Position numbers and translations under genes: made by a program. From Patescibacteria group bacterium (GTDB lineage: Bacteria > Patescibacteriota > Microgenomatia > UBA1406 > GWC2-37-13), in NCBI GenBank assembly GCA_026004455.1, contig BPJE01000002.1, positions 131,207 to 195,206 on the forward strand: a stretch of 64,000 nt of DNA, read 5' to 3'. This document shows, piece by piece, positions 5,265-5,852 of the stretch (position 1 is its first letter; the number at the start of each line of letters is the position of its first letter). Under the pieces are notes generated by a model. It had not been told where the DNA came from. It saw only the letters and a program-made list of their open reading frames with translations, and searched no databases.

Positions 5265-5293
5265 TTGACTTTTAATCATTTATATGTTATACT
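5265..5293 (+). promoter_or_regulatory. sigma70-like promoter for the ncRNA candidate
   Basis: TTGACT (5265-5270), 17-bp spacer, TATACT (5288-5293). Confidence 0.75.
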
Positions 5294-5299
5294 ATAAGA

Positions 5300-5852
5300 T
5301 ATACTCTCCGCATTATTGCGGAGTTGGTATCCTAGGTTTAAACCGGGAAAAATGCTTCCCGGGCTTTAAACCGGGATGCACCTTAAAATCGAGATTAAAG
5401 TACTAAAAACCAACCAACACAAATTGCTTGTGTTGGTTAATCATCATTGTCATGCTGAACTTGTTTCAGCATCTTGTTTGAGATCCCGAAATAAATTCGG
5501 GATGACAAAATAAGAGTTTTTAGGAAATAATCTCAAGGGGTAAAGCAGCTGTTTTTAATCCCAAAAGGATTAAATTACAGATGCTTTTCCGCCGAAAATC
5601 AAAAGTATGAGTCGTGTTCGAATAGAACAAATAAGGCGAATACTTGAGATTTAGGCGGATCAGGTTACTTAGGGCAAAAAAGGGCCAAGGCAAAAGGCGC
5701 GTGGCATGATCAAGTGATGATATGGTAACCTCCTAAAACCTCCTTTCAGCTGAAAGTTAGTGTTTTAAATAATGTCATCCTGAATTTATTTCAGGATCTC
5801 TAAAAAACACTAACAAGTAAGCCGGATAGGACTCGTCCACTTTGGAGAGAAA
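5300..5852 (+). ncRNA. candidate structured non-coding RNA, ~550 nt, family not recognised
   Basis: Strong promoter, no long ORF, and many nested complementary segments: CTCTCC 5304/GGAGAG 5844; TATCC 5328/GGATA 5824; GAGATTA 5391/TAATCTC 5528; CTAAAAAC 5403/GTTTTTAG 5516; TCCGCC 5588/GGCGGA 5654; AGGTTAC 5662/GTAACCT 5725; GTTAGTGTTTT 5756/AAAACACTAAC 5804. Confidence 0.65.

What the first reader, a model, noticed from the sequence alone, without database searches (positions are those of the whole stretch)
5265..5852. Unidentified ~550-nt structured RNA candidate with a near-consensus promoter
TTGACT-N17-TATACT precedes a ~550-nt stretch without a long ORF in which many distant segments are complementary: CTCTCC/GGAGAG and TATCC/GGATA close the ends; GAGATTA/TAATCTC, CTAAAAAC/GTTTTTAG, AAAGCAGCTGT/ACAGATGCTTT, TCCGCC/GGCGGA, AGGTTAC/GTAACCT and GTTAGTGTTTT/AAAACACTAAC are nested inside. 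I could not match it to RNase P RNA, tmRNA, SRP RNA or group I/II introns from their conserved motifs. It lies between S23-family four-helix-bundle genes.
Basis: partly seen in the sequence, partly recalled or inferred. Interest (0 to 1): 0.8.

Follow-up and report, generated by a model that had tools for sequence, protein, structure and literature searches.

The report
Large structured leader-type RNA, uncultured bacteria
The stretch is a real, conserved large structured RNA found in one family of tiny uncultured bacteria, matching no known RNA family; it starts at a conserved promoter, sits just upstream of a gene slot for ever-changing secreted proteins, and in this genome carries other genetic elements, including a small gene, inserted in its hairpin loops.

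Summary
The promoter (TTGACT-17-TATACT, 5265-5293) and a strong RNA-like fold (z = -11.2; -12.1 with inserts spliced out in silico) are real, and Rfam 15 has no match. The locus is present in at least 13 genomes of one Microgenomates-type (CPR) family, in the order DUF11 gene, RNA, GC-rich secreted-protein gene wherever the contig reaches far enough. Orthologues keep the promoter, share sequence blocks and covarying helices, and nearly all have an early terminator-like hairpin.

The 3' arm (5825-5852) pairs with 6334-6368, across an S23/IVP gene sitting in the hairpin loop, as in a 23S rRNA intervening sequence; G245 has the same arrangement. The RNA therefore runs to about 6390. Another part (5542-5659) is a copy of a separate dispersed two-hairpin element, itself unmatched in Rfam.

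Best mechanism: a long attenuated 5' leader of the downstream variable secreted-protein gene. A free-standing RNA is the main rival. Transcription and function are inferred, not shown.

The parts
5265..5293 (+). promoter, TTGACT-17-TATACT with extended TG
   Evidence: conserved in orthologues
5300..5384 (+). 5' region: hairpin 5307-5323, then three segments with mutually exclusive pairings AAACCGGGA 5340-5348 / GCTTCCCGG 5354-5362 / CCGGGATGC 5371-5379, then ACCTT 5380-5384
   Evidence: sequence; G001 has CCAGGA / GCTTCCTGG / CCAGGAAGC, compensatory
5385..5534 (.). palindrome/REP insert (stems GAGATTA/TAATCTC, CTAAAAAC/GTTTTTAG; REP pair 5449-5507) in the loop of ACCTT/AAGGGG
   Evidence: absent from G001; REPs dispersed in the genome
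5542..5587 (+). hairpin A of the dispersed two-hairpin (A+B) element
5588..5659 (+). hairpin B of the dispersed element; occupies the H8 hairpin site of the RNA
   Evidence: R1 hit 66 bits
5662..5731 (+). AGGTTAC...GTAACCT domain, counterpart of the orthologues' CAGGUUA..GGGC..CAUGG..AACCUG domain
5739..5747 (+). 5' strand of helix H11 (CCTCCTTTC)
5756..5814 (+). hairpin with a REP copy in its loop (about 5774-5798)
5825..5852 (+). 5' arm of the terminal hairpin H9
5858..6331 (+). S23/IVP gene cassette in the H9 loop: broken S23 ORF from 5907 (stop at 6111-6113), flanked by inverted repeats of GTTCCAAGTTCC type
   Evidence: PF05635; same arrangement in G245
6334..6368 (+). 3' arm of the terminal hairpin H9
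6381..6389 (+). 3' strand of helix H11 (GAAAGGAGG, SD-like); approximate 3' end of the structured RNA
6525..7421 (+). GC-rich (54%) lipoprotein-like variable gene downstream of the RNA
3935..4603 (+). DUF11 gene, syntenic anchor upstream of the RNA

Best explanation
Shown by sequence comparison: a conserved, promoter-preceded, multi-domain structured RNA locus of one Patescibacteria (CPR) family, with mobile hairpins and an S23 gene lodged in its loops in this genome. Inferred: it works in cis as a long 5' leader. RNA polymerase starts at the conserved promoter and, in nearly all orthologues, meets a terminator-like hairpin about 100 nt in. Exclusive pairings near the 5' end (local AUAUGUUU/AAACAUAU hairpin versus long-range GGGACGAAAC/GUUUCGUCCC and UAUGUUU/AAACAUG) would decide between stopping and reading on. 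Readthrough RNA folds into the large structure, ends in an SD-like GAAAGGAGG held in a helix, and continues into the variable secreted-protein gene. In the window the early terminator is gone, so this copy would be always on, or decaying.
For: Same order DUF11 - RNA - GC-rich secreted/lipoprotein gene, all in one direction, in three genera. Promoter conserved; U-run of at least 5 roughly 50-115 nt after the -10 in the orthologues printed, not in the window. No strong terminator-like site found right after the RNA in the window, L214 or L224. Independent folds of G010, G004, G014: z -12.4, -12.0, -9.1 with the same main helices. Helix covariation: H8 50/50 cells in 10 sequences (0 of 2000 arm swaps), H9 inner 41/42 (2 of 2000). 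Switch-like triple a/b/c with compensatory change between window and G001.
Against: No transcript data. The downstream gene is mostly unrelated between genomes while the RNA is conserved, which is odd for a gene-specific leader. G009, G012 and G018 have the DUF11 gene but no RNA after it. SD-like GAAAGGAGG has no start codon right after it in several loci. The window copy lacks the terminator and several 5' helices. Arms for the covariation counts were chosen by eye.
Confidence: 0.48

Rival explanations
1. A free-standing structural RNA (in the style of the ornate RNAs OLE, GOLLD, ROOL) with its own RNP or oligomer function, processed at its 3' end, merely located before the variable gene.
For: RNA far better conserved than the gene after it; own promoter; large multi-domain fold with 5' and 3' parts paired and a possible pseudoknot; loops tolerate big insertions, as in rRNA.
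Against: No terminator found at its 3' end; early terminator-like hairpin is more typical of a leader; narrow distribution, 7 of 385 class genomes by R2.
Confidence: 0.35
2. A pile of dispersed palindromes (REPs, S23 cassette, two-hairpin element) that folds only because it is palindromic, with no function of its own.
For: REPs, S23 cassettes and the A+B element are dispersed repeats.
Against: Orthologues without these inserts fold equally well and share promoter, sequence blocks and covarying helices.
Confidence: 0.05
3. A very diverged form of a universal RNA, above all RNase P RNA.
For: RF00010 finds no RNase P RNA in G000 or six relatives of its order; CPR are known for diverged RNase P RNA (PMC8172020).
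Against: No CR-V-like motif in the window RNA (one search gives only chance-level hits elsewhere); the family is not universal and its locus is empty in some genomes; tmRNA is present elsewhere in G000.
Confidence: 0.04

Closest known systems
Large ornate bacterial RNAs OLE, GOLLD, ROOL (PMC12286853)
   Same: Hundreds of nt, multi-domain, own promoter, no long ORF, unknown or structural role
   Different: No Rfam match to any of them; different host group; upstream of a variable secreted-protein gene with an early terminator-like hairpin; oligomerisation untested
Attenuated mRNA leaders (T-box, leader-peptide attenuators, riboswitches)
   Same: Promoter, early terminator-like hairpin, exclusive pairings, gene downstream in the same direction
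   Different: Much longer structured part after the terminator; no known aptamer, T-box sequence or family match; downstream genes unrelated between genomes
23S rRNA intervening sequences with S23/IVP genes (PF05635)
   Same: S23 gene placed in the loop of a long hairpin of a structured RNA, in G000 and G245
   Different: Host is not rRNA; excision not tested; the window's S23 ORF is broken
Whalefall-1 RNA (RF01762)
   Same: Two orthologues give weak matches (26.1 and 23.9 bits) at the GUCCCGCC hairpin plus GAGGAC
   Different: Below the gathering score of 37; the other three loci in that scan do not hit; no hit in the window

Membership tests
Any Rfam 15 family (RNase P, tmRNA, SRP, 6S, introns, OLE, GOLLD, ROOL, HEARO and others) | covariance-model score at or above the gathering threshold | tested here: not met
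RNase P RNA | CR-I/CR-V P4 core; universal presence in relatives | tested here: not met
   RF00010 no match in G000; CR-V pattern without support; R2 in 7 of 385 genomes only
tmRNA | RF00023 match; single copy per genome | tested here: not met
   the tmRNA of G000 lies elsewhere, C1:319390-319775
Attenuated 5' leader | promoter, early intrinsic-terminator-like hairpin, gene downstream in the same direction | tested here: met
   met in most orthologues, but the window itself lacks the terminator
Attenuated 5' leader | conditional readthrough controlling the downstream gene | not testable with these tools
   no expression data
Ornate RNAs (OLE/GOLLD/ROOL type) | stable free RNA with RNP or oligomeric structure | not testable with these tools
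   needs RNA-seq, probing or cryo-EM
23S rRNA IVS | S23/IVP gene in a hairpin loop of a structured RNA | tested here: met
   window and G245
23S rRNA IVS | host RNA is 23S rRNA | tested here: not met
   no rRNA match here

The most novel reading that the evidence does not exclude
A new class of large free-standing RNA of Patescibacteria with its own RNP or oligomeric function, serving a hypervariable secreted-protein locus, whose hairpin loops act as landing sites for S23/IVP genes, REPs and a separate structured mobile element.
Probability: 0.25. Interest if true: 0.85.

Novelty: new variant of a known kind. Interest (0 to 1): 0.62.

Why it matters
In the open papers searched I found no structured RNA described specifically for these uncultured bacteria. 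This adds a large RNA family with an unusual address: a conserved RNA before a slot of mostly unrelated GC-rich secreted proteins in AT-rich genomes. It shows S23/IVP genes occupying hairpin loops of an RNA other than rRNA. It also exposes a second, widespread two-hairpin element near tRNA, tmRNA, 16S rRNA and attenuator sites. All three points can be tested with existing metatranscriptomes.

Tried and rejected
Rfam at permissive thresholds: only chance hits. Viral, phage or plasmid origin: core pattern absent from IMG/VR; a second pattern hits only coding-like sequence there; a third hits nothing; phage and plasmid collections empty. RNase P by model and CR-V pattern; tmRNA. The first DNA hits looked like homologues of the whole RNA but are the separate A+B element in unrelated contexts, so they are not counted as evidence for the RNA as a whole. 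S23 genes as obligatory partner: rejected, most orthologous loci lack one in the RNA. RNAalifold on the MAFFT alignment misaligns the variable parts, so helices were counted by hand-set arms.

Full report
Setting. The window lies in a 0.89-Mb, AT-rich genome (G000). Contigs hit by the same core pattern are named Roizmanbacteria, Woesebacteria, Levybacteria and similar, so this is a Microgenomates/Patescibacteria genome.

Observation. The promoter and the strong fold are there. No Rfam 15 family is met, in strict or permissive scans.

A separate element inside. A DNA search found, besides genome-dispersed REPs at 5449-5507 and about 5774-5798, a conserved core at 5588-5659 that occurs in many Microgenomates loci. 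A covariance model (R1) finds it in 42 of 83 genomes of the order, up to 8 copies each, once in G000. It is hairpin B of a two-hairpin element: an outer stem of varying sequence, a tandem G.A next to GCC/GGC, and further internal loops. Across 109 distinct copies the outer stem is fully paired in 91, against at most 54 in 200 arm swaps; G.T mismatches there outnumber A.C 32 to 4, pointing to the given strand as the folded one. Over all stems counted the ratio is 62 to 19; in copies antisense to their neighbour it is 16 to 8. Copies abut tRNA 3' ends, 16S 3' ends and attenuator U-runs and, antisense, SD sequences and tmRNA 5' ends. It is not diagnostic of the window RNA as a whole.

The RNA itself. 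G001 has the same promoter and the same upstream DUF11 gene, and its contig ends inside the RNA. Using the DUF11 protein as a syntenic anchor gave orthologues in G003, G004, G005, G010, G013 and G014, and 5' parts in G006 and G007; G392 of another genus was recognised by a shared block. A model of one conserved hairpin (R2) added G245 and G386, all in the same family: 7 of 385 genomes of the class. With the window that is 13 genomes. Shared blocks are GGKCAUAUGUUUAAGGGACGAAACAUA, GUUUCGUCCC(A)GGCGGGGACUAGC, GCACUUUUACAAAAUGGGU, AUCAGGUUA and CAUGG..UUGAACACGA. The window and G001 are diverged members that lack some of the 5' blocks. The promoter spacer is 17 nt in those checked, and a U-run follows within about 50-115 nt in the orthologues printed but not in the window (in G006 the region is interrupted).

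Structure. G010, G004 and G014 fold with z = -12.4, -12.0 and -9.1 and show the same main helices. The 5' end (GGGCAUAUGUUU) can pair with the conserved AAACAUGGCUC, while CAGGUU/AACCUG encloses that motif, so both together would form a pseudoknot (inference). Hand-set helix counts: H8 (where the window carries element B) 50 of 50 cells paired in 10 sequences, reached by 0 of 2000 arm swaps; terminal hairpin inner part 41 of 42, 2 of 2000; outer part 37 of 42, 21 of 2000. Registers were chosen by eye, so these numbers lean towards structure, although conserved neighbouring motifs anchor them. H11 rests on four sequences and is not significant by arm swap.

Corrected borders. In the window the arm 5825-5852 pairs with 6334-6368 across an S23/IVP gene cassette, about 29 pairs. 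G245 shows the same arrangement with another S23 gene. The domain is closed by CCTCCTTTC 5739-5747 and GAAAGGAGG 6381-6389. With REPs and cassette spliced out in silico the core still has z = -12.1. So GGAGAG does not pair with CTCTCC at the 5' end, and the RNA runs to about 6390.

Neighbourhood. Where the contig reaches far enough the order is DUF11, RNA, a GC-rich (54-57%) gene for a secreted or lipoprotein-like protein, then in several a glycosyltransferase and a large membrane protein, in regions otherwise of about 26-43% GC. The slot proteins of different genomes are mostly unrelated (only G010 and G004 resemble each other). The window's protein has relatives sharing only parts of it, which suggests modular exchange.

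Mechanism. I favour a long attenuated leader of the variable gene (0.48) over a free RNA (0.35). Shown: promoter, structure, conservation, synteny, inserts. Inferred: transcription, termination, switching, control. The window's copy has lost the early terminator and several 5' helices and may be relaxed.

Literature. PMC8172020 reports diverged RNase P RNA in CPR, which fits the failure to find it here. PMC11270868 reports 23S_rRNA_IVP ORFs in insertions of CPR rRNA genes. No paper on this RNA or on the A+B element turned up in the open library; absence there is weak evidence of novelty.

Noticed in passing
window 5542-5659; loci L047-L065, L075-L164: A dispersed two-hairpin element (A+B), no Rfam match, in 42 of 83 genomes of the order; its hairpin-A end abuts tRNA 3' ends, 16S 3' ends and attenuator U-runs, and in antisense orientation SD sequences, -35 boxes and tmRNA 5' ends.
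   Followed up: partly
L056 6045-6131 (+) and 6333-6416 (-): RNase P RNA of G151 seems to carry hairpin B in its P3 region and a reverse-complement copy of another subtype in a later peripheral helix, suggesting DNA-level insertion in either orientation.
   Followed up: partly
G000, G001, G010, G015, G026, G039, G042: RF00010 finds no RNase P RNA in these genomes of the order; probably very diverged.
   Followed up: partly
window 6401-7600 and the same place in L233-L238, L244: A GC-rich (54-57%) slot gene in AT-rich genomes encodes mostly unrelated secreted or lipoprotein-like proteins at a conserved locus.
   Followed up: partly
tmRNA loci L174, L177, L180, L182, L188 and others: The smpB-tmRNA spacer of several genomes holds the A+B element or variants, always in the same orientation; others (G392, G004, G010) have none.
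   Followed up: partly
L029 1823-1900 (G001): The leader after the promoter has a small ORF MKIVLKSQRQDRQNYW* followed by a terminator-like hairpin with a U7 run; could be an attenuator leader peptide or chance.
   Followed up: no
L051 700-4030; L063; L079; L050; L054: Copies of the element lie between leader-peptide or T-box attenuators and aminoacyl-tRNA synthetase or amino-acid genes (thrS, pheS, aroF type).
   Followed up: no
L214 1031-1100 (-); L217 2546-2603: Weak Whalefall-1 (RF01762) matches below the gathering score at the same hairpin of two orthologues.
   Followed up: partly
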